Below, piece after piece: positions 5,205 through 38,825 of a stretch of DNA of 57,098 bases. Within the stretch, counting starts at the first letter, position 1. The number at the start of each line of letters is the position of its first letter. The stretch is from a virus. The position numbers and the translations under genes were made by a program. The notes beneath the pieces are model-generated. The model was not told where the DNA came from. It saw only the letters and a program-made list of their open reading frames with translations, and did no database searches. The stretch is taken from the IMG/VR virus record IMGVR_UViG_3300042934_000352, positions 1-57,098 of that record. One strand, 5' to 3'.

Positions 5205-6013
5205 TGAATCTATATGATATTGGATTTAAAAATGATATTACAGCTATCCTCAGTCAAGAATGGGAAGTTGACAACAGAGCTACATGGAAAGATGGTACTC
5301 CTATAGCAACAAAACGAATACTGCACTCTGTTAATTCCTATGATCTGTCTAAAGAGTTTCCGGCATCAACACTTAAACCTACTCCGATTAAATCATGCTT
5401 CCTAGAAGATGATTGGATTTATCGTCAACAATCTAGTAATGTAAAGGATTTAGGTTTGAATATATGGAATGACTGGGCTGATGAAACAGGTTCAATAGGT
5501 GAAGCGTATGGAAGCCAAGTAGCGAAACCTGTATTCGGATACCCTAACCAAATTGAATATGTGTTAAATGAGATTCAAAAGAATCCTACCTCAAGACGAT
5601 TAATCATTGAATTATGGAATGTAAACGAATTACATAAGATGAATCTCGTACCTTGTTGTCATCATTTAAACTTTTCGGTTAAAGATGGTATGTTACATTT
5701 ATTCTTAAAGCAAAGGTCAAATGATTTCCTTGTAGCAAATAATTTCAACGTTGCACAATACGCTTTGTTAGTACATATGATTGCGATTCATTGTAAATTA
5801 GAAGCTGGAATATTAACTCATGCTGTAGTTGATAAACACATTTACAATAAACACGAGGATCAGGCTTTAGAATTGTTAAGTAGACCAATTCACAAAGCAC
5901 CTAAACTATGGATAAATCCAGAAGTAACTAATTTCTATGATTTCAAAGTGGATGATTTCAAGTTGCAGGATTACGAAACAGGAAAAAGTATGCGTTTCGA
6001 GGTGGCAGTATAG
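5204..6013 (+). CDS. thyA: Thymidylate synthase ThyA
   Basis: Methylates dUMP to dTMP with methylene-tetrahydrofolate. The nucleophile is Cys152 in LVPCCHH (148-154), the usual PCH motif with an extra Cys in front. The dUMP-binding stretch QRSNDFLVANNFNVAQYALL follows, with the conserved RS, D, FN and QYA positions. Length 269 is typical of the classical folate-dependent enzyme (not the ThyX type). It overlaps the sigma-like gene by one base and the DHFR gene by one base, giving a tight sigma-thyA-dfr unit in which DHFR recycles the dihydrofolate produced here. Confidence 0.93.
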   Translation: MNLYDIGFKNDITAILSQEWEVDNRATWKDGTPIATKRILHSVNSYDLSKEFPASTLKPTPIKSCFLEDDWIYRQQSSNVKDLGLNIWNDWADETGSIGEAYGSQVAKPVFGYPNQIEYVLNEIQKNPTSRRLIIELWNVNELHKMNLVPCCHHLNFSVKDGMLHLFLKQRSNDFLVANNFNVAQYALLVHMIAIHCKLEAGILTHAVVDKHIYNKHEDQALELLSRPIHKAPKLWINPEVTNFYDFKVDDFKLQDYETGKSMRFEVAV

Positions 6014-15749: not shown

Positions 15750-16679
15750 TTAGTTAATTAATTTTAGATAATCATTCAATATACAATCAATATTATTTTC
15801 ATCCCAATAAGGAATCCTAAGTAGAGGTATATTATTATCTATACAATATTGATTTTTAATCTGATCACGTTTTTGGCCTTCCACAAATCCTTCTTCACCA
15901 CCAAACCAATCAATAGGTCTATAATGTTGCTCACCATCGAATTCAATAAGCAAAGTGACATTATCATCATGGAATAAGGCGAAGTCAAACCTTAGTAGAT
16001 TTATGTAAGAACAATCTGGAAAAGTGTACTCTTTTTTAAAAACTAATTGTTTTTCTGTTAAGTGATTAAATATCTTTCTTTCACCATTGCTCATACTATC
16101 TTTGCAATTAGGGCATCTTGAGTTAGAATACATGAAGTTAATTGGAGCGGATTCAAATACAGTATCGCAATTAGTATGTATAAATTTAAGAAAAGTATAA
16201 TTATTAATATAGGAATCTAAGACTTTATATTCAGCATTGGTAACTTCCTCTACTTTTCTCTTAAACTCATCATCTGTATATCTTTCACGATTTTGACACC
16301 GTGGACATCTTTGACCACGAGCTGTAAATTGAGCAGGGGTCATATTCCATATATAATCACAAACGATGTGTTTAAATTTAACTTGTATTAGTGCGTTTCT
16401 GTAGTCGCTTAATACTTCATATTCATCACCAACTATATCATAAACTTTCTTTTTGAATGATTCAGTATTACACTTGATTCTCCCTGAGCAATTCGGACAT
16501 TTACTTTGACCAGTTAGTAAATTTCTAGGATAAACATCCCATTCATAATCGCATTCATTATGTTTGGTTAATATTTTAGTAGTTGTGTTAACATACTCTC
16601 CAAGAAAAGTGTAGATATTTTCACCGTATATATCTTCAATTTCTTTAACAAACTGCACATGTGTTTTTCTTTTCGACAT
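15750..16679 (-). CDS. Homing endonuclease: three zinc-ribbon repeats plus PD-(D/E)XK-like nuclease
   Basis: Three homologous units of about 65 residues (1-70, 71-135, 136-200) share F...V....Y.VL..Y.N, an H..C...W motif and a closing CPxC, typical of zinc-ribbon DNA-binding repeats in phage mobile endonucleases. The C-terminal domain (205-309) has NGERKIFNHL, then LLIEFDGEQHYRPIDWFGG and IPLLRIPYWD, an ExDG..HY core like that of Vsr/EDxHD-type nucleases such as I-Bth0305I. It is free-standing between tail genes and flanked by terminators on both sides, as expected for a late insertion. Role: spread of its own gene. Confidence 0.82.
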   Translation of the reverse strand: MSKRKTHVQFVKEIEDIYGENIYTFLGEYVNTTTKILTKHNECDYEWDVYPRNLLTGQSKCPNCSGRIKCNTESFKKKVYDIVGDEYEVLSDYRNALIQVKFKHIVCDYIWNMTPAQFTARGQRCPRCQNRERYTDDEFKRKVEEVTNAEYKVLDSYINNYTFLKFIHTNCDTVFESAPINFMYSNSRCPNCKDSMSNGERKIFNHLTEKQLVFKKEYTFPDCSYINLLRFDFALFHDDNVTLLIEFDGEQHYRPIDWFGGEEGFVEGQKRDQIKNQYCIDNNIPLLRIPYWDENNIDCILNDYLKLIN

Positions 16680-25933: not shown

Positions 25934-25959
25934 AAAAAGAGGAGCAATTAAGCCCCTCT
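25934..25959 (-). terminator. Minus-strand terminator after the tape measure gene
   Basis: AGAGGGGC (minus, 25959-25952) pairs with GCTCCTCT (25945-25938), then TTTTTC. The stem touches the tape measure stop codon and ends just before the Dit ribosome binding site. Confidence 0.75.
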
Positions 25960-28900
25960 ACAGTACACCTTTATTCTTTAATTTATTTACTAATGCGTTA
26001 CCTAAGTTGTCGATTTCTGCTCTCGTACCATTAAAATTCTCAATGTGAACAAGATTCTCGAAACTCATTCCTCCACTTGTAGCAGTTTGCTTAGGAATTA
26101 ATCCACTAATCATACCGCTAATAGATGAGAAGATATTCGGAATATTCTTAGGTGGAATTTGTAGCTCACCCGGAAGTGACTTAATCAACATTCCATTTGA
26201 ATCATTAAACATCTTATTCGCTAATTCTGCCAATCGACTACCTTTACCGCCAACAATTCCACCTTCATGGAAAACTCGACCAGTAGCAATTAGTTTACGT
26301 TCAATAATACGTTTCAATACATCTTCTGCACGTTTTAAGTTTTCAAATTCAGCGTTGACACGGAATCCACCATTATCACTTGAAACATTTGCTTTTTCTG
26401 CTCCGTATTGTAACTGTAGAATATCAGCCAATTCTGAAGCTTTTAACCCATCTTTAAATGTACCTGTGATTAGGTTTCCTTTGTTTGAAGTTGTGTTACC
26501 ACCTGTTGAACCTGTATTTCCTGTGTTTCCAGTATTAGTAGAAGGAGTAGGTGTATTTCTGCCCACTTCTAATCCTAAACTTGCCTGAGCATCTTGGACT
26601 GCGTTAATTGAATTAACAACATTCTGCCAACTAGCATCAATTTCCTTTGTTATGTCTTCGTTATACTTTGCGAATTCATCAAGGAAATTGTTTAGTTCAA
26701 TTTGAATATTCGCTAAGTTATCGTGAATGATTTCTTCACGTAAAGCAGCAAATCTTTCTTCATTGTTTAGCAATTCCGAATAATGACGGTCAGTAAGTTT
26801 ACGTTTGTCATCTAATGATTCTTTCTCATTATCATAGGAATCTTGTAAACTTTCCTTTTGCAACTCAATAGAACGGTCATGATTTTTCTCATCAATCTGC
26901 TCCATTAATTCAGCAAGTTGTTTCTGTAACTCTAACCGTTTCACTTTGGCCTCTTGTGAATCATCTAATGAAAGTCGGCTAATTTGAGTTTGAAGGGATA
27001 ACTGCTCCTTCTGCATTTTCGATAATTCTTTATTGTGATCACGAGCAGCTTCTTCCTTATCAAGTAAGGCAACTTTCTTTTGATAAGCTTTTTCGAGAGC
27101 ATCAATTTCATCGTCAATCGCAGCAAGTTTCAAGTCACGTTCAGTCTCAATAGCTTTCTTAACCGTTTCAATTACCTTGTCAGCCATTTCAGCTTTAGCT
27201 TCAGCAAGTGTTTGTTCATTATCACGAATAGCGTCCGTTAATTCGCCATATGAAATAGACAATTCATCGACTTTTTTCTTGAGATTGGCTTTTTCTTCAG
27301 CAGATAAGTTTTCAGTGCGAAGAGCTTTCTTTAACTCTTCACGTTCAAGAATAGTGAATTCCATTTTCTTTTTGTGAATGTCGTTTTGGAGTTTAAGTTC
27401 CGCTTCCCAATCCTTCGAGCCAACCTCATACATAGATTGTCTACGTTGAGAGTCTATGATTTGTTTGTCAAATTTGGATTGAGTTGCTGCGAAATTCTTT
27501 TGGACTTGCTCAATTTTCTTCGCTACTTTTTCCTGTACTTCGGCTAATTCGGCAAGTTTGGATTGGGCAATGTCTGTATTGATTTGGTCAAGGGAAGATT
27601 GGAAATCACGATTATTACTTGTTAAAGAAGAGATGGTTTTTTCATTATCATCAAATTCTTTCTTTAACTCGTTGTATAATCCCTTTTTCTCATTGTTGAG
27701 TTTAGTCGGATCACCCATACCTGAAATGATATTACTGATTTTCTGATTGCGTTCAGCTAAACGTTTCTGTTCAGCGTCATTTACTGTCATTAGATTCTTC
27801 AGAATAGGTTTCTGTTTCTCTAGTTCTTTACGATACGCTTCAGAAGTGTCTTTTAGTTTAGAAAGTTTATGTTCAGATGCGTCCAATTGGTCATTATACT
27901 TCGTTTGTTCTTTTTCATACTTAGATGATGTGTACAGTGATACAGGTGCGTCTCTTCGGCTAGAGGTATTACGTGTTTCTCTTTCTTTTTTCTTATCTTC
28001 TTGCTTAGGTTTATCAGGAGTTAAATACCCTGTAAAGTCGATACCTTTTGCAAGATCATCAATAGCTTTTTTATAGCTACCAGTCTCAACATCTAAATCC
28101 ACTTTAATTTTATTGATTCTATCCATTGCGTTGATTTTATCTTGCAAAGCATCCGTTATTTTGTTATCTTCATTCAGAACTAACTTATCTTTAGCATTAG
28201 CATCCTTAATTTGTTGTGCAATTTCATTGAATTTATCGACTATTTTTTGTAGGAATTCAAGTTCACTTTTTAAAATGTCGATACGATTCTTAGAAGCTTG
28301 AGCAGTTGCTAATAACATTGCTTGTTCTTGTGTAATTTTACCTTGAGCTAGTAATTCGAATGCTTGTTTCAATACTTCCGATGCTTTTATTTCATTTTGC
28401 ATAGCTTCAATATTTATTTCTTTACCTTTAACTAAATGAGGATAAAGTTCTGATAAATAACCAACCGCACTTGCTAACTCATTGGACGAATTCGCACTCA
28501 ACTTTTCAGCTTTAGATAACAGTTGGTAAACACCAATCGCTTCTTTTGCTTGTGTGAGTTGAGATTCAGAAACTCCTAATAATCGTTCTATTGCACTTCT
28601 AAGTTCGTCTGCTCCATCAGCAGCCCCACTAGTTGCGTCACCTAAATCGGCTATTTCCTCAGTCGGAGCAAATGCTAAAGCTGCTTTTAATTCTTCTTTG
28701 GTTTTACCTGTTGACTTAGATAATTTATCAAAATCAATGGATGCCATTACTGCCGCATTACCAGAATGTGTTAGGGAAGTTGCTATTTCGTCTACAATTT
28801 TATCACTTGTGCCTTTAGGAAGTAATTTAATGAGGGAGTTTCTTAGTTCTTCAAATGAACTTTTAACGTTTTCTTTATACTCTTCAAAATGGTCAGCACT

Positions 28901-30574
28901 CCAGTTACCATCCAAGTTATCTTGAAATTTAACAACTGCATCACTGTAATCTTTTAGAATACCGTTAAACTCACCGCTATTTAAGGCTAGTAATGTATTA
29001 TCAAAAGCTTTGCTAACCTTACCAGAAGTCATTTCTGATTCAGCGACAAACAATGTGAAATCATTGATAATTCCATTTGTAATTTTATTGGAATTAGCTC
29101 CTAATGCTTGATTGGCTTTAATCATTTCCATTGCTGATAAACGATGTGACATTTTAGCAGTTTCTAATTCGCCACCAAGCATTTGATATTTCTCAACAAC
29201 TTTTTCTAGGTCTTTGAACATTCCTTTTTCAAAGGAACTTACCTTTTTACCATCAGCTTGTTTCGCAAGAATTTCCTCATATTTCTTTATTGCATCTTCA
29301 ATCTTTGTGATACCATAGTCATCAATGTTAGTTCCTGTTAGAATCATTTCCATTGCATTTTCGGTATCTTTTATTAAATCTTTGGAGCTATCGTAATTTT
29401 CTTTAGCCTCTGTTCTGTTTTTAATAGCATCTAATTTTTCCTGAACAGCAATCTGTTTTTCTAATAAGTCGATTTGACTTCTAATTTTTTCACTACTACC
29501 GAGTATTTTGTTGCCGTATTGATCTTCACCTACGACAAGTTCAGGCATCAGACGTGCCAATTCATTTCTTACTGAGTTAAACTCTTGTAAGTCTTCAAGT
29601 TTATAATCCTGTTTACTAACAACTTCACTTAATCTCTCATATTCTTCTGCTAGAACGCCAACTTCATTTTTACTAGCTTTATAGCTTTCAGTTAAATCCT
29701 TAGTTTTTCTTTCAAATTCTTCTAGTCGTTCTCTTGCTTTACCCATTGACTTAAGTAGAGCTTCAACACCAAAACTAATACCAACAATAACTGCACCAAT
29801 TCCAGTAGAAATTAGTGTAGCTCTCAATGCTTTAGATGTAATTCCTACAGCAGTTAATGCCCGACCAAACATATGTGTTTCAGCAGCCATTAATTTTACT
29901 TGTGTTCTAAATGTTGTACTCATCAACATTGTAGAAGTTGTGATTAATCCCATTATTAAAGGTAGTCCACCAAGGTTTTTCACTAACCAAGTAACACCTT
30001 CTGCAACTGTTTTTAAGCCTTTCATTGACTGAATAAATCCCTCTGTAATGAATGCCTCTCCCATACTCAAAGCTAATTCCTCGAAACTTTGTTTCATTAA
30101 ATTAATTCTAGCTTGAAGTGATTTCATGTATTGGTCATTCTCACGAGAAGCAGAGCCTAAACTATCCTTTGAATCGGTTAACATTTTCTCAAATAAATGC
30201 CAATTATCCAATAGGGCGGTCATTCTACTGATATGATATTTACCAGCTAAACCTTCCATTACCGCAGCTTTTTCAACAGTGCTAATGTGTTTTACTTTTT
30301 CAGCAATTTCACTGTATAAATCAACAGCGTTACGCATATCACCAGTATTTTGATCAATGAATTGTACATTCAACATCTTCATCGCATCTTGTGCTGGTTG
30401 ACCTAAAAGACGAGGGAGGACACTTTTCACAAAGTTACCAACCTCATTACCACTTTGTTTAGTGGCAGCCGTTACTGTTCCAATTATCGCATTTAGTTGA
30501 TCCATATCTAATCCAAATGCATTAGCAGTCGCTCCAGCTTTTGCCATACCTTGTGCCAATTTTTCTACAGTTGT
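25958..30574 (-). CDS. Tape measure protein, exon 3 (residues 456-1993)
   Basis: The tape measure protein sets tail length and helps DNA entry. This exon opens with TTVEKLAQGMAKAGATANAFG, the conserved TMP core sequence, followed by TVTAATKQSGNEVGNFVKSVLPRL. Hydrophobic segments near its start (LGGLPLIMGLITTSTMLM, ALRATLISTGIGAVIVGIS) may span the membrane during ejection. Most of the rest is coiled coil, with a Gly/Thr/Asn linker (NTGNTGNTGSTGG) before the C-terminal domain. The frame joins exon 2 at 30848 after removal of the intron 30575-30847. The apparent start TTG 30559 is inside the exon and is not a real start. Confidence 0.88.
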   Translation of the reverse strand, partial: TTVEKLAQGMAKAGATANAFGLDMDQLNAIIGTVTAATKQSGNEVGNFVKSVLPRLLGQPAQDAMKMLNVQFIDQNTGDMRNAVDLYSEIAEKVKHISTVEKAAVMEGLAGKYHISRMTALLDNWHLFEKMLTDSKDSLGSASRENDQYMKSLQARINLMKQSFEELALSMGEAFITEGFIQSMKGLKTVAEGVTWLVKNLGGLPLIMGLITTSTMLMSTTFRTQVKLMAAETHMFGRALTAVGITSKALRATLISTGIGAVIVGISFGVEALLKSMGKARERLEEFERKTKDLTESYKASKNEVGVLAEEYERLSEVVSKQDYKLEDLQEFNSVRNELARLMPELVVGEDQYGNKILGSSEKIRSQIDLLEKQIAVQEKLDAIKNRTEAKENYDSSKDLIKDTENAMEMILTGTNIDDYGITKIEDAIKKYEEILAKQADGKKVSSFEKGMFKDLEKVVEKYQMLGGELETAKMSHRLSAMEMIKANQALGANSNKITNGIINDFTLFVAESEMTSGKVSKAFDNTLLALNSGEFNGILKDYSDAVVKFQDNLDGNWSADHFEEYKENVKSSFEELRNSLIKLLPKGTSDKIVDEIATSLTHSGNAAVMASIDFDKLSKSTGKTKEELKAALAFAPTEEIADLGDATSGAADGADELRSAIERLLGVSESQLTQAKEAIGVYQLLSKAEKLSANSSNELASAVGYLSELYPHLVKGKEINIEAMQNEIKASEVLKQAFELLAQGKITQEQAMLLATAQASKNRIDILKSELEFLQKIVDKFNEIAQQIKDANAKDKLVLNEDNKITDALQDKINAMDRINKIKVDLDVETGSYKKAIDDLAKGIDFTGYLTPDKPKQEDKKKERETRNTSSRRDAPVSLYTSSKYEKEQTKYNDQLDASEHKLSKLKDTSEAYRKELEKQKPILKNLMTVNDAEQKRLAERNQKISNIISGMGDPTKLNNEKKGLYNELKKEFDDNEKTISSLTSNNRDFQSSLDQINTDIAQSKLAELAEVQEKVAKKIEQVQKNFAATQSKFDKQIIDSQRRQSMYEVGSKDWEAELKLQNDIHKKKMEFTILEREELKKALRTENLSAEEKANLKKKVDELSISYGELTDAIRDNEQTLAEAKAEMADKVIETVKKAIETERDLKLAAIDDEIDALEKAYQKKVALLDKEEAARDHNKELSKMQKEQLSLQTQISRLSLDDSQEAKVKRLELQKQLAELMEQIDEKNHDRSIELQKESLQDSYDNEKESLDDKRKLTDRHYSELLNNEERFAALREEIIHDNLANIQIELNNFLDEFAKYNEDITKEIDASWQNVVNSINAVQDAQASLGLEVGRNTPTPSTNTGNTGNTGSTGGNTTSNKGNLITGTFKDGLKASELADILQLQYGAEKANVSSDNGGFRVNAEFENLKRAEDVLKRIIERKLIATGRVFHEGGIVGGKGSRLAELANKMFNDSNGMLIKSLPGELQIPPKNIPNIFSSISGMISGLIPKQTATSGGMSFENLVHIENFNGTRAEIDNLGNALVNKLKNKGVL

Positions 30575-30847
30575 CTTTATGTTCCATTAAGTTCGCTACA
30601 CTTAATGCGTTCTCTTATGAACTGCTACATGTCGCCATATAGAACAGACTATATCAAAAACTCAATGAGTTCCTTCCCGTTTCCCGTTTCCCTATCCGAA
30701 GATAGCCCTCAATCGCTTAGGGGGTACGTCTTTCGACTAGTCGTTACACCTTCCTCAATAGAGGCTTGGCTCGGTATTATCTCAAGAGACTTTCACCGAA
30801 TTAGAGAAGTTTAGATATGGTATCACTACCATAAATGCCTAATATTA
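30575..30847 (-). other. Group I intron 2 in the tape measure gene (273 nt, no ORF)
   Basis: On the minus strand the segment contains the group I core: GAGCCAAGCC, GUGUAACGACUAG (R element) and UUGAUAUAGUCUG (S element). The 5' exon ends ...AACGCU, a required U; GGC within the intron (30837-30835) pairs with it including the U-G at the splice site, with one C-A mismatch further up. The intron ends in G (30575). Removal joins NISNKNA to TTVEKLAQG in frame. No endonuclease ORF is present. Confidence 0.85.
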
Positions 30848-31247
30848 AGCGTTTTTGTTAGAAATATTATTCCAAGAATCTATAACTTTCATGGAATTTT
30901 TCGTTTCTAAGTTAAATTGCACCATTGCAGAAGTTAAATATTCGGCTGCTTGGCCTGCTGAAACCTCACCTACGTTTGAGGTAATTAGACCTGCTTCCCC
31001 AAGATTAATTAAGTCTTGTTCCTTATAACCTTGTCGAGCGAATTCACCATATGCGTCTAATACTTCGGTCAATGTTTTACCAAATTTAGCAGCACTCGAA
31101 CTAGCATTGTCCATAATTTTAGCGAAATTTGTCTCTTCCGACATTACTTTTTTCAAATTCGTTAAACGAGTATCCACGTCAATTATTATTCCGACAGTAC
31201 TCTGAAGTGCCTGAATTGACCCATAAAATGCCGTTGTAGCTGCCATC
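30848..31247 (-). CDS. Tape measure protein, exon 2 (residues 322-455)
   Basis: 133 full codons plus the last base of codon 322. It encodes MAATTAFYGSIQALQSTVG and VDTRLTNLKKVMSEE, classic tape measure core motifs, and ends SWNNISNKNA. The following in-frame TAA belongs to intron 2. The ATG at 31246 is simply the second codon of the exon and has no ribosome site. Confidence 0.88.
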
Positions 31248-31571
31248 CATTGTTTGTATTAATTATCAATCGTGCTTTTGATAACTCACCAATTAAGGTG
31301 ACTATATGTTTCCATATAGACTAGACCATATCTTGACATTTACATGTCCTTCCCGTTTCAGCTCGCCATTTGGCACTTGCAAGCCTACGATACTCCCAAT
31401 AAGGTTTCTCTGGTCGTTGAGCGTTCCTCTATTCAAGGCTTCGTTGCTGATTGCCCAATCCATTTAATTTTCAAACATTCACGCTTAGGCTTATTTCATC
31501 CTTACGTTGTAGTTTAAATGGCTCTAAGGGGTTTCCAGCAGTTAAAGAAGTTTTACTCCTGCATGAATTTT
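31248..31571 (-). other. Group I intron 1 in the tape measure gene (324 nt, no ORF)
   Basis: Minus-strand core elements: GGGCAAUCAGCAACGAAGCC (P/Q side), CUCAACGACCAGAGAAACC (R) and UCAAGAUAUGGUCUAGUC (S). The 5' exon ends UCCUGU, which pairs with GCAGGA inside the intron, giving P1 with the required U-G at the cleavage site. The intron ends in G (31248). The junction restores codon 322 as GT+G (Val) and reads FPV-MAATTAFYG. Strongly supported by sequence, pairing and frame together. Confidence 0.9.
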
Positions 31572-32536
31572 ACAGGAAATTTAACCATCGCTGTTCTGAA
31601 TGCATCCATCATCGTCATTGATGAACGTGCAGTTTCTTTCGCTGAATTTTGGAAACTTTTTAATTGCTTCTCCATATGTTTAAGCGAATTACCAGCGTTA
31701 GTAGCAGTAGGGTCAATTTTTTCTAATGACTTTATTAATGCATTTACACCTGAACCATCAACTGTTTTTGAATGTGTTCTGAGTAGGTTTTTAGAATTCG
31801 AGATAAGCTTTTCTTGTAACGTCTTATTGTCGGCTTCTTTATTGAGATTGATGACAGCCTGACGTACTTTATCAATTTCTTTAGCATTCCTAGCACCATT
31901 GATAGCGTTATTTAACTTATTAAACATATCAGTAGTGAGTTTACCTTGATCATATAGCTTAACTAAAGATTCTCTAGTTTTATCTAAAGTTTTACCAGAG
32001 GTGTCAGCAACAGTGCTACCTGTTACTTTTCTCTCGTTGTTGTAATTAATAGTAGTACCAATACTACCATCTTTAAAAGTTTGAGAGCCACCAGTTAAAT
32101 TACCTTTACCATCAAACTTTTGTACTTCTTTTTGCTTTTGTCCTAATTTAGTAGTGGCGTCTATTAATTCACCAACAGCTTTGGTTTCCTTTTTAGTTGA
32201 TTCGGTACGCTTATCGGTTATGGTTTTTACTTTCTCAATGATTTCGCCACTTTTTAGATACTGTTTTGTTATTTCTTTTGTTACTCCATTGACATCCTTT
32301 AGGATTTCTTTCTCTTCCCGTATAACCTTATTTAAATCTTTAGCAACAACTCTATGATTTTCCATTGCCTTAGAGAAGTCAGTTAGAGTTTTTACGATTT
32401 TGTCATCTAATTCAACATTCAATTTAAGTTTGTTAATCTTTTTTTCGATACCCTTTAATGCAGTGTTGATCTCACCGATAGTAGCACCAACATTAAGCGT
32501 ACCAATTATTTTTAATCTTAAGTCGTTTCCTGCCAT
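31572..32536 (-). CDS. Tape measure protein, exon 1 (residues 1-321 plus part of 322)
   Basis: Start ATG 32536 follows AAAGGAGCGTCTAT. The N terminus (AGNDLRLKIIGTLNVGATIGEINTALKGIEKKI) is the usual tape measure opening, then a long helical/coiled-coil region rich in Lys and Glu. The exon ends MMDAFRTAMVKFPV at 31572. If unspliced, translation stops at TAA after FMQE within the intron, so the gene needs splicing to make a functional protein. Confidence 0.88.
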
Positions 32537-33312: not shown

Positions 33313-33351
33313 AGGTAAAATAAAAGCCACCTAATAATTAATTAGATGACT
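33313..33351 (-). terminator. Minus-strand terminator after the homing endonuclease at 33338
   Basis: AGUCAUCUAAU (33351-33341) pairs with AUUAGGUGGCU (33335-33325), 11 pairs with two U-G, followed by TTTTATTTTACC. The stem lies over the last codons of the endonuclease gene. Confidence 0.78.
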
Positions 33352-34624
33352 TCTGATAAATAGTATTTGCTCTCATAAAATAAGGTAAGATTATATTCTT
33401 ATTTAATTTTAGGTTATTGATTGACAATATATAATTATAACTATTGTAATCTTTAAGAATGCCATTGTTCTTAACATAGTCAATTATTAGCTTTTTGCAT
33501 AATTCTGGATTGTCATTTATATCTTTTTCCCATAGATACAAGATATTTACATTGTGATATTTTTTAAGATAAGTGTTTTTAGACTTATCTCTAATAACAT
33601 CTTTCTTTTGGATATCATGTAAAGAATCATAATCTTTATATTTAATTGGATTAGCGTGCCAATAGTCACCCATTACTTCAATACCCAAACAATTTTCTTT
33701 ATTATAGAAATCTAATACATAATACTTGAATGGAATTTCTTCTTCAAAATTCATACTTAATTCGTCAACAATTTCTTTAATTTTTATTTGAATTGACGTG
33801 TTAGTTTGAGGGAATTCACCATTTGCTATACGGTTGGCAGTGACAATTCTCATATGTTCGATTTGTTCTGGTGTTTTTGCTACACCAAATTGAGGGTGTT
33901 TTTCACCAACATAGTACATTGACCTAAATTTATAATAGCATTCTTGAGAACAAAATTTATCTTTGTTATTTTCTTTTCCCCATTTGTACGTTTTGTATTC
34001 TTTGTCGCACACTGTACATTTGGTTTTTATATCTTGATAATTATACATTTTGTCACCGAATAAATTTTCACTTCTAAAAGTTGCATAGCAATATCTTGAG
34101 CAAAAATGCCACTTATTAGTTTTAACTTTAGATTCATTCACTTCATATTCATTACCACAGTGGTCACACTTAACTAACTTCTTATCTTTTTTAGGATTGG
34201 GATTATGTTTAACAAGAGTGTCTTTAGCAACACAGCTTCTTGAACAATAGTGTTCACCATGTCCTTTAAATTCTGATGGTTTTTTATCAAATACTTTTCC
34301 ACAAACCTTACAATTTGTCTCAATACTTGTTTTTCTACTTTTCCCACGTAATTTTGCAGTTCCAGTGCGAGTTTCCCATATCCCTCTACATTTCGCATTA
34401 CAAAAATGATTGGTAGAATTTATAACACTTCCATACCTTTTATCGAGTATCTTATTGCAATTATCACATTTAACTTTTATTATTTCGTGTGAATTGGAAG
34501 ATAAATGTTCGATTGGTACGATTAATTCATCATGTAGTTTTGTATATACATATCCAAGTGATTCATAATGTTTTCTATTTGCTCCAACCCACTTCACTTT
34601 AATAGATTGATTAGGTAATATCAC
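33338..34624 (-). CDS. Homing endonuclease with four zinc fingers and Vsr-like nuclease domain
   Basis: Residues 50-245 hold four treble-clef-like fingers, each CxxC ... (F/Y)CS/N...C (CDNCNKILDKR, CKVCGKVFDKK, CDHCGNEYEV, CTVCDKEYKT), probably reading a long DNA site. The C-terminal domain (260-400) has FKYYVLDFYNKENCLGIEVMGDYWHANP, D..K..YLKK and VNILYLWEKDI, the D/E/H arrangement of Vsr-type mobile nucleases. Start is GTG 34624 after AAAGGAGATGG. A structured leader (34665-34732) carries a loop complementary to this ribosome site. The gene lies close to the intron-bearing tape measure gene and could help mobilise those introns; this is unproven. Confidence 0.83.
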   Translation of the reverse strand: MILPNQSIKVKWVGANRKHYESLGYVYTKLHDELIVPIEHLSSNSHEIIKVKCDNCNKILDKRYGSVINSTNHFCNAKCRGIWETRTGTAKLRGKSRKTSIETNCKVCGKVFDKKPSEFKGHGEHYCSRSCVAKDTLVKHNPNPKKDKKLVKCDHCGNEYEVNESKVKTNKWHFCSRYCYATFRSENLFGDKMYNYQDIKTKCTVCDKEYKTYKWGKENNKDKFCSQECYYKFRSMYYVGEKHPQFGVAKTPEQIEHMRIVTANRIANGEFPQTNTSIQIKIKEIVDELSMNFEEEIPFKYYVLDFYNKENCLGIEVMGDYWHANPIKYKDYDSLHDIQKKDVIRDKSKNTYLKKYHNVNILYLWEKDINDNPELCKKLIIDYVKNNGILKDYNSYNYILSINNLKLNKNIILPYFMRANTIYQKSSN

Positions 34625-35549: not shown

Positions 35550-36578
35550 CTAAATATCATCCAAACTCTTTTTCTCTACTTTCTTAACTCCTTCAGAAGT
35601 GAAGAATTTCGAGAAATCATCCTCAGCTTCATTGTCATCATAAATTTCAATCATGTCGATAGATTCCCATCCAAAAAACTCTTTAATAATTTTATCCGGA
35701 ATGTTATTTGCTCTAAGTTTAGTAGTTAAATAGTGACGTAGGGAGTGGAAATAAAAATCCACACCTAAAAGCTTTGAAAATGAATTACTCCAACTCGAAA
35801 GGGTAGTATCGGAAGCAGGAATCCACTCTTCATTTCTCCTAGTTACAAATAAATCATCAGTAGTTATACCTAATCGCTCTCTTTCTTCCATCCACAAGTC
35901 GAAATATTCTTGGAATCCTGACTTTAAAACGAATTTATGTTTCTCAGCACCATTACGACCTCGACCCTTAATTTTTATCTTTATCGGAGTTTTGTAATAT
36001 GCATTATTTTGAATATATTCTTCCTTAAAGAAACTTACTTTGAATCTCAACAATTCGTTCAATCTAGCCCCTGAGTTAGCTGCTAAAGCAAACACACATG
36101 CTTTTTGATATTGTTTAGTTTCAACTAAAGATTGAAGTAAATTATTTACTTGTTCTGCGGTTAAAATAGTTTTCTCACGAACAGGTTTCTTTTGGGGCGA
36201 TTCGATTTTATTCACTATATTGCGAAAATCAGGGTATAGATCATCCATGATATTTTCAATAAAATTACAAAGACTACTCAAACAAGACTTTATACGTCTT
36301 GTTCTATTTGAACTGTGACTCCATGAGTTTATCGAGTAACCTTGAAATGCAATTATGTCACGTTTATTCAAGTCACCAATGAAACGATTACCACAATTAT
36401 GTAAAAGAAATATAAATATAATTCGCATATCATTTTCGTATTGTTTTATTGTTCCGGGTGATTTGTCCGTTGACATTAAATAGGTCTTCCACTCTTGAAG
36501 TAGTTGCTTATTTTGCGGATTAACTTTTTCCCAATCCGATTCATTAAATATTCGATTGTAAACTGTACCTCTAGCCAA
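35550..36578 (-). CDS. Tyrosine recombinase (phage integrase/XerC-D family)
   Basis: Residues 20-115 form a SAM-like DNA-binding domain (PGTIKQYENDMRIIFIFL). The catalytic domain (about 135-330) shows Arg172 (NSGARLNELLRF), a beta-hairpin Lys region (IKGRGRNGAEKHKF), HSLRHY (His278, Arg281), Trp304 (FFGWES) and nucleophile Tyr313 (IEIYDDN). All key positions are present, so it should be active. It lies inside the tail assembly region, an unusual place for an integrase, and is the second recombinase in the window. It may resolve multimers, or invert or mobilise a segment, rather than integrate the phage. Confidence 0.88.
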   Translation of the reverse strand: MARGTVYNRIFNESDWEKVNPQNKQLLQEWKTYLMSTDKSPGTIKQYENDMRIIFIFLLHNCGNRFIGDLNKRDIIAFQGYSINSWSHSSNRTRRIKSCLSSLCNFIENIMDDLYPDFRNIVNKIESPQKKPVREKTILTAEQVNNLLQSLVETKQYQKACVFALAANSGARLNELLRFKVSFFKEEYIQNNAYYKTPIKIKIKGRGRNGAEKHKFVLKSGFQEYFDLWMEERERLGITTDDLFVTRRNEEWIPASDTTLSSWSNSFSKLLGVDFYFHSLRHYLTTKLRANNIPDKIIKEFFGWESIDMIEIYDDNEAEDDFSKFFTSEGVKKVEKKSLDDI

Positions 36579-37680: not shown

Positions 37681-37708
37681 AAAAAAAACATCCTATTGGT
37701 TAGGATGT
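37681..37708 (-). terminator. Minus-strand terminator after the homing endonuclease at 37700
   Basis: ACATCCTA (minus, 37708-37701) pairs with TAGGATGT (37695-37688), followed by eight T. It overlaps the end of the endonuclease gene. Confidence 0.82.
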
Positions 37709-38722
37709 CTGTGAATATAATCTATCAAAATAGTCCTTATCCATTCTTATTAGATTACCGAAATTATAAGTTAATATATTTTTACCTAATCTAACATAAC
37801 CTTCGTCTATATTAATCTCTGAATTTGTACCATTATCATTCACGTATTCTAAACATTTATAAATTGCATCTAGTAAAATATCTTTTTCTGGTAATTTATC
37901 TCTGGTAGATACTAATCTAACAATCTTGTAACCTCGTCTTTTTAAATAGAATTCTCTTGCTATTTCTTTTTTATCAAATTCTTCATCTGTTAAATTACCG
38001 AACTTCACTTGTAGTCTATGACCGCCACCATCATATTCAAAAGCTATGTTGTCATTTAATACAATATCTATGTAATAATTCCCTAATGGATAATTTAATT
38101 TTCCACCTAATAATTCATGTAAGTATTTTTGGGTTCTTGATGTAGGTGCAGTATTGTTTTTGAAAAGCGTTCGTTTACTTTTTCGTTTAACTTCTTCATT
38201 TTGCAAACTATACTCAACACCGTATCTTTCTATATTAGTGTTTATTTGCTTTTGTCTAATTTCAGGGCTTTGAGCAGAGTATTCTACACCATAACGTTCC
38301 ATCATTGTAGATTTCATTTGATTCTGTACTTCTTGTGATTGAGCAGGATTTTCTACTCCATATCGAATGATATTTGTTTTCTTTATTTGGTTTTTCACAT
38401 CTTCTAATTGGAGTGTAGATTTCACACCATATTTGATCATGTTAACTTCTTCAGACTTAATAAACTTACACTTTTCACAAGCACATTTATTAACATATTC
38501 ATGATTTTTTACTCTATTGGTATAGTCATTCATTTTCATAAAATATACGGTATCACAATAATCACAAATAACTTTAACGTCACGATGACTTTTAGAAGAA
38601 AGGTCTTTTTGCTTAATGAGAAAAGGTTCGCCAATTTTTGTGAATATATATCCCTTTTGAGTATAGATTGGTTTACTTCTTCTTTCCCAAGTCATTTCAA
38701 TCAATTCATCTTCCAAGAACAT
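37700..38722 (-). CDS. Homing endonuclease with YGV repeats and Vsr-like nuclease domain
   Basis: A N-terminal zinc-finger region (CDYCD ... CACEKC, near 57-90) is followed by four repeats of about 24 residues, each built on (M/I)x(R/K)YGV(E/K)...Q..EV...(M/I)K(S/T)T, which resemble DNA-reading motifs of phage mobile nucleases. The C-terminal domain has NYYIDIVLNDNIAFEYDGGGHRLQ, and RGYKIVRLVSTRD, a D/ExDG..H core. ATG 38722 is chosen since GAAGGGAATG lies just before it; an in-frame TTG at 38761 lies within the leader. It is controlled by its own motif promoter and a structured leader like that of the 33338 gene. Confidence 0.82.
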   Translation of the reverse strand: MFLEDELIEMTWERRSKPIYTQKGYIFTKIGEPFLIKQKDLSSKSHRDVKVICDYCDTVYFMKMNDYTNRVKNHEYVNKCACEKCKFIKSEEVNMIKYGVKSTLQLEDVKNQIKKTNIIRYGVENPAQSQEVQNQMKSTMMERYGVEYSAQSPEIRQKQINTNIERYGVEYSLQNEEVKRKSKRTLFKNNTAPTSRTQKYLHELLGGKLNYPLGNYYIDIVLNDNIAFEYDGGGHRLQVKFGNLTDEEFDKKEIAREFYLKRRGYKIVRLVSTRDKLPEKDILLDAIYKCLEYVNDNGTNSEINIDEGYVRLGKNILTYNFGNLIRMDKDYFDRLYSQTS

Positions 38723-38728
38723 AATATC

Positions 38729-38825
38729 ATTCCCTTCTATGATTTCCCTTAAATTAATCAATGGTAAGAGGGATAAGGGAATCCCTCTTTATTAAGCATG
38801 GTAGCTAATCACGCTCTAACCATTG
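38729..38825 (-). ncRNA. Structured leader RNA of the 37700 endonuclease gene (RNA 2)
   Basis: Minus-strand RNA: outer 7-bp stem CAAUGGU/ACCAUUG (38825-38819 with 38765-38759); hairpin A, GCGUG-AUUAGCUAC-CAUGC (38814-38796), five pairs with a G-U that exists only on this strand; hairpin B, AAGAGGGAU-ucccuu-AUCCCUCUU (38789-38766). The hairpin B loop region AUUCCCUU is an exact 8-base complement of AAGGGAAU (38736-38729), the ribosome binding site of the endonuclease. It matches RNA 1 in layout and in the loop of hairpin A, but not in stem sequences. Confidence 0.7.

What the first reader, a model, noticed from the sequence alone, without database searches (positions are those of the whole stretch)
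25958..32536. Tape measure gene interrupted by two small group I introns
Three frames at 32536-31572, 31247-30848 and 30574-25958 together make one 1993-residue tape measure protein. The two interruptions (324 and 273 nt) each contain group I R and S core elements, end in G, and follow an exon U. Intron 1 has a perfect P1 (UCCUGU with GCAGGA, U-G at the cut). Both junctions restore frame and conserved protein text (FPV-MAATTAFYG and NKNA-TTVEKLAQG). Phage group I introns usually sit in polymerase, reductase, terminase or lysin genes; two in one tape measure gene is uncommon, and neither carries an endonuclease.
Basis: partly seen in the sequence, partly recalled or inferred. Interest (0 to 1): 0.72.

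Follow-up and report, generated by a model that had tools for sequence, protein, structure and literature searches.

The report
Two group I introns in tape-measure gene
A Bacillus-type phage has its tail-ruler (tape measure) gene cut into three pieces by two small self-splicing RNA introns, an arrangement already known from other phages; the only unusual point is that one intron either ends in A instead of the near-universal G or costs the protein a strongly conserved residue.

Summary
Rfam finds two full-length group I introns (RF00028, 66.2 and 70.4 bits, cut-off 50) at the two interruptions. Joining the three exons gives one 1993-residue protein without internal stops. Intron-free relatives (best: Lysinibacillus phage LC76P1, 52%) read straight through both junctions. 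Splicing itself is predicted, not shown.

The claim of rarity fails. Vibrio phage ICP1's tape measure gene has three introns with splicing shown by RT-PCR (PMC10448857), and intron 1 here is 87% identical over 114 nt to a stretch of one of them. Of 96 relatives fetched, six carry tape-measure introns (five group I type, one group II); Geobacillus virus E3 is another.

One detail is doubtful. Ending intron 1 three nucleotides earlier restores FPVWMAATT and a contiguous 6-bp P10 helix, but the intron would then end in A; seven other tape-measure group I introns examined end in G. So intron 1 either ends in A, drops a conserved residue, or holds a one-base change or error. RT-PCR would decide.

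Verdict: new member of a known kind, with one testable anomaly.

The parts
31572..32536 (-). Tape measure gene, exon 1 (965 nt; ATG at 32536)
   Evidence: PHROG 4211 tail length tape measure protein, E 4.5e-13; ribosome-binding site GAAAGGAG upstream
31248..31571 (-). Group I intron 1. The 5' splice site after 31572 is firm.
   Evidence: RF00028 66.2 bits; P1 UCCUGU/GCAGGA; P10 AUGGAU/AUUCAU only with the 31251 end
30848..31247 (-). Tape measure gene, exon 2 (400 nt; 403 nt starting at 31250 if intron 1 ends at 31251)
   Evidence: PHROG 4211, E 7.6e-42, profile positions 593-723
30575..30847 (-). Group I intron 2 (273 nt, ends in G)
   Evidence: RF00028 70.4 bits; 81% identical over 110 nt and 77% over 77 nt to a tape-measure intron of another phage, L054
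25958..30574 (-). Tape measure gene, exon 3 (4617 nt with stop)
   Evidence: PHROG 4211, E 4.4e-158, profile from position 726
33338..34624 (-). Free-standing gene resembling a homing endonuclease, 0.8 kb upstream of exon 1; possible partner in intron mobility (inferred)
   Evidence: PHROG 1271 HNH endonuclease E 1.3e-14, PHROG 12131 homing endonuclease E 1.2e-10

Best explanation
The tape measure gene of an SPbeta-related Bacillaceae-type phage carries two group I introns without endonuclease genes. Each RNA folds into the group I core, cuts after an exon U paired to G in P1, and joins the exons by the usual guanosine-started two-step reaction. The product is one tape measure protein of 1993 or 1994 residues. 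Shown: intron family, frame, continuity with intron-free relatives. Inferred: self-splicing in the cell. Open: the exact 3' end of intron 1.
For: RF00028 full-length hits above the gathering score at both interruptions. Exons join in frame with no stop. Intron-free homologs (LC76P1, Mammaliicoccus phi36, Staphylococcus SPbeta-like) align without a gap through junction 2 and with one missing residue at junction 1. Exon 2 and exon 3 match adjacent positions of the same PHROG profiles (593-723 then 726 on; 318-449 then 452 on). Good P1 with U-G at both 5' sites. Related introns lie in tape measure genes elsewhere: ICP1 with experimentally shown splicing, E3 and IMG/VR phages.
Against: No RNA data. 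Intron 1 cannot satisfy both the end-in-G rule and the conserved aromatic residue, so it may splice slowly, at more than one site, or at an altered site. Simple minimum-free-energy folds do not reproduce the whole core, and the energy of intron 1 is only modestly below shuffles (z -1.55).
Confidence: 0.93

Rival explanations
1. Intron 1 ends at 31251 with A as its last nucleotide; the product keeps FPVWMAATT (1994 aa). It would be a natural exception to the terminal-G rule.
For: 90 of 90 alignable relatives have W, Y or F at this residue. This site alone gives a 6-bp P10 contiguous with the guide sequence; 0.3% of positions in the window would reach that. No U..G junction in frame restores the W.
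Against: Seven other tape-measure group I introns with protein-defined ends all end in G; PMC9223047 calls the terminal guanosine universally conserved. The P7 guanosine-binding pair reads as the ordinary G-C by eye, so an A should bind poorly (general knowledge of group I introns). P9.0 pairing by eye favours neither end clearly.
Confidence: 0.4
2. Intron 1 ends at 31248 with G. An earlier terminal G, 3 nt upstream, mutated to A, and the next in-frame G took over, so the protein lost one residue.
For: Keeps the terminal-G rule; a G lies exactly 3 nt downstream and in frame; explains why the P10 match is left over as a relic.
Against: Deletes a residue that is aromatic in every alignable relative and leaves P10 with one pair.
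Confidence: 0.4
3. The base at 31251 is an assembly or sequencing error, or a minority variant; the true intron ends ...AAACG and splices in the ordinary way with the W kept.
For: One A-for-G change would make everything canonical. The window is a metagenomic or otherwise assembled virus record without reads.
Against: Single-base consensus errors at one given position are rare in general; no second copy of this site was found.
Confidence: 0.15
4. The introns are dead and the gene is a pseudogene in three pieces.
For: Intron 1 has the 3' end anomaly.
Against: All three exons stay open over 5982 nt and match the profile end to end; both intron cores score above Rfam's cut-off.
Confidence: 0.04

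Closest known systems
Vibrio phage ICP1 tape measure gene introns (PMC10448857)
   Same: Several introns in one tape measure gene; intron 1 here is 86.8% identical over 114 nt to L016:5001-5114, which by position is the third ICP1 intron, itself without endonuclease.
   Different: Three introns instead of two, one with an HNH endonuclease; unrelated tape measure protein and a Gram-negative host.
Geobacillus virus E3 tape measure gene (KP144388)
   Same: Homologous tape measure gene with a group I intron (48.7 bits, E 2.8e-11) without endonuclease, 4 codons from the site of intron 2.
   Different: One intron, a different site, a different intron subtype; annotated only as N- and C-terminal genes.
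IMG/VR phages L054 and L044 (IMGVR_UViG_2615840593_000003, IMGVR_UViG_2645727636_000004)
   Same: Homologous tape measure genes with two insertions each; the first L054 intron is a relative of intron 2 and also sits after GCT in an Ala codon.
   Different: Other insertion sites; one shared intron carries a 613-residue nuclease-like gene in L054 and a skipping-rope RNA in L044.
Staphylococcus epidermidis phages Quidividi, Terranova, Twillingate (PMC6597688)
   Same: Introns reported in the tape measure coding region.
   Different: Boundaries were not determined there; Herelleviridae myophages.

Membership tests
Group I intron (RF00028) | Covariance-model match over the full core (P3-P9) | tested here: met
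   66.2 and 70.4 bits, gathering score 50, model 1-253 of 253
Group I intron (RF00028) | U at the end of the 5' exon, paired to G in P1 | tested here: met
   Read from the sequence: intron 1 UCCUGU/GCAGGA; intron 2 GCU/GGC with U-G at the cut
Group I intron (RF00028) | G as the last intron nucleotide | tested here: inconclusive
   Intron 2: met, G at 30575. Intron 1: G at 31248 only if a residue that is aromatic in 90 of 90 relatives is lost; A at 31251 if it is kept
Group I intron (RF00028) | Precise exon joining in frame | tested here: met
   1993 aa (or 1994 aa with the W) without internal stop; homologs continuous
Group I intron (RF00028) | Self-splicing activity | not testable with these tools
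   Needs in-vitro transcription or RT-PCR
Mobile group I intron | Homing endonuclease in the intron | tested here: not met
   No ORF of that size in either intron; homing-endonuclease-like genes stand outside at 33338-34624, 37700-38761 and 15750-16679
Tape measure protein (PHROG 4211) | Profile match and place in the tail operon | tested here: met
   E 4.4e-158 for exon 3; Dit and a minor tail protein follow directly

The most novel reading that the evidence does not exclude
Intron 1 is a natural, working group I intron whose last nucleotide is A instead of G while its guanosine-binding pair is still G-C, with P10 pairing doing most of the work of choosing the 3' splice site.
Probability: 0.3. 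Interest if true: 0.6.

Novelty: new member of a known kind. Interest (0 to 1): 0.33.

Why it matters
As two introns in a tape measure gene it adds one case to a known pattern: this gene is a repeated target for group I and group II introns, at many different sites, in Firmicutes and Vibrio phages. Its real use is a clean test. Intron 1 sets the rule that group I introns end in G against a protein position that is aromatic in every alignable relative, and one RT-PCR product decides between them. If the A end is used, a near-universal rule has a natural exception; if not, the intron has shifted its 3' site and cost the phage a conserved residue.

Tried and rejected
Rarity of tape-measure introns: rejected. 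P9.0 pairing as evidence for the A end of intron 1: I first saw a GU/AC pairing, but in the register of the Tetrahymena structure (P7 extension, PMC10020454) it does not hold, so P9.0 is left out. Other splice pairs for intron 1: of 50 in-frame U..G junctions near the ends, only 31572/31247 keeps FPV and MAATT together, and none restores the W. A second copy of the same intron at the same site: two DNA pattern scans of viral contigs found none. Close relatives of exon 3 by single-protein scan: none; the scan with an alignment worked. Literature on non-G intron ends: searches gave no natural case in this library, which is weak evidence because most older papers on this are not held. Frameshift or fragmentation by sequencing error: rejected, because the gaps are full intron cores. 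Quidividi's tape measure gene was not reached: the stretch fetched does not contain it.

Full report
What was checked. The window is one virus record of 57,098 bases. All three match PHROG 4211, tail length tape measure protein, in order along the profile. The gene has a good ribosome-binding site, GAAAGGAG, and is followed by Dit and a minor tail protein. The nearest relatives by this protein are SPbeta-like phages and Lysinibacillus phage LC76P1.

The interruptions. Rfam reports two matches above its gathering score in the whole window, both RF00028 group I intron and both at the interruptions: 70.4 bits (30857-30625) and 66.2 bits (31633-31302). Both are full-length to the model. Neither holds an endonuclease frame. 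The two introns are only distant relatives of each other (short matches).

Relatives without introns. LC76P1 (52% over the joined stretch), Mammaliicoccus phi36 and Staphylococcus SPbeta-like phages read through both junctions. Junction 2 fits exactly: NKNA|TTVEKLAQG against NNYATTVEKLAQG. Junction 1 does not fit exactly. Over 90 alignable sequences the missing residue is W in 42, Y in 46 and F in 2; some of these are near-duplicates, so the number of independent lineages is smaller.

The 3' end of intron 1. Starting exon 2 three nucleotides earlier, at 31250, reads GTA TGG ATG and restores FPVWMAATT (1994 aa). The same site gives a contiguous 6-bp P10 between the exon (AUGGAU) and the bases just 5' of the guide sequence (AUUCAU). 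But the intron would then end in A. No U..G pair of splice sites in frame restores the W. I compared the ends of other tape-measure group I introns whose junctions are fixed by protein continuity: intron 2, L054 first intron, L028, L039, L029, Geobacillus E3, and the intron shared by L044 and L054 at a further site (read). All end in G and follow a U. PMC9223047 describes the terminal guanosine as universally conserved. So intron 1 breaks one of two rules, or one base in the record is wrong. I cannot decide this from sequence; I give the A end and the shifted G end equal weight.

How common tape-measure introns are. [quoted passage not shown] Our intron 1 is 86.8% identical over 114 nt to a stretch between the ICP1 endonuclease gene and the last tape-measure exon. 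Introns in the tape measure gene are also reported for Quidividi, Terranova and Twillingate (PMC6597688). Among 96 homologous loci from genomes and virus contigs, insertions break the homologous stretch in L028, L029, L030, L039, L044 and L054. L028 and L039 are Rfam group I hits (92.9 and 53.4 bits). L030 holds a group II intron. L054, L044 and L029 hold group I type introns that Rfam does not score above threshold; there the assignment is by eye or by relation to intron 2. Geobacillus virus E3 has one at 48.7 bits, annotated so far only as a split gene. The sites differ in nearly every case. Intron 2 and the first L054 intron are relatives at different sites, both after GCT in an Ala codon, which fits movement to new sites that need only a short guide match (inference).

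Mobility. The introns carry no endonuclease. The window has three free-standing homing-endonuclease-like genes, one of them at 33338-34624, 0.8 kb upstream of the tape measure start. Collaborative homing, where a neighbouring free-standing endonuclease cuts the intron-free site, is discussed for ICP1 terminase in PMC10448857. That it applies here is a guess.

Verdict. The finding is correct and ordinary in kind.

Noticed in passing
L044:4595-6052: A tape-measure group I intron of another phage carries a 140-residue ORF and a skipping-rope RNA (RF02924, 65.2 bits, 5546-5631), while the homologous intron in L054 carries a 613-residue nuclease-like gene: a change of cargo inside one intron.
   Followed up: partly
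L030:3384-4000: The tape measure gene of a Saccharibacillus deserti prophage is interrupted by a group II intron (RF02004 104 bits, RF00029 62.1 bits).
   Followed up: partly
L007:3466-3769 (Geobacillus virus E3): Unannotated group I intron between genes E3_042 and E3_043, which together are one tape measure gene.
   Followed up: yes
L029:4565-4788: A 224-nt insertion in a Bacillus pumilus tape measure gene looks like a small group I intron (P1, an 8-position P10 with one mismatch, ends in G) but Rfam does not score it at all.
   Followed up: partly
window:15750-16679, 33338-34624 and 37700-38761 (minus strand): Three free-standing genes resembling homing endonucleases in one 57-kb fragment.
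   Followed up: partly
window:10157-11740 (+) and 35550-36578 (-): A serine recombinase and a tyrosine integrase in the same phage fragment.
   Followed up: no
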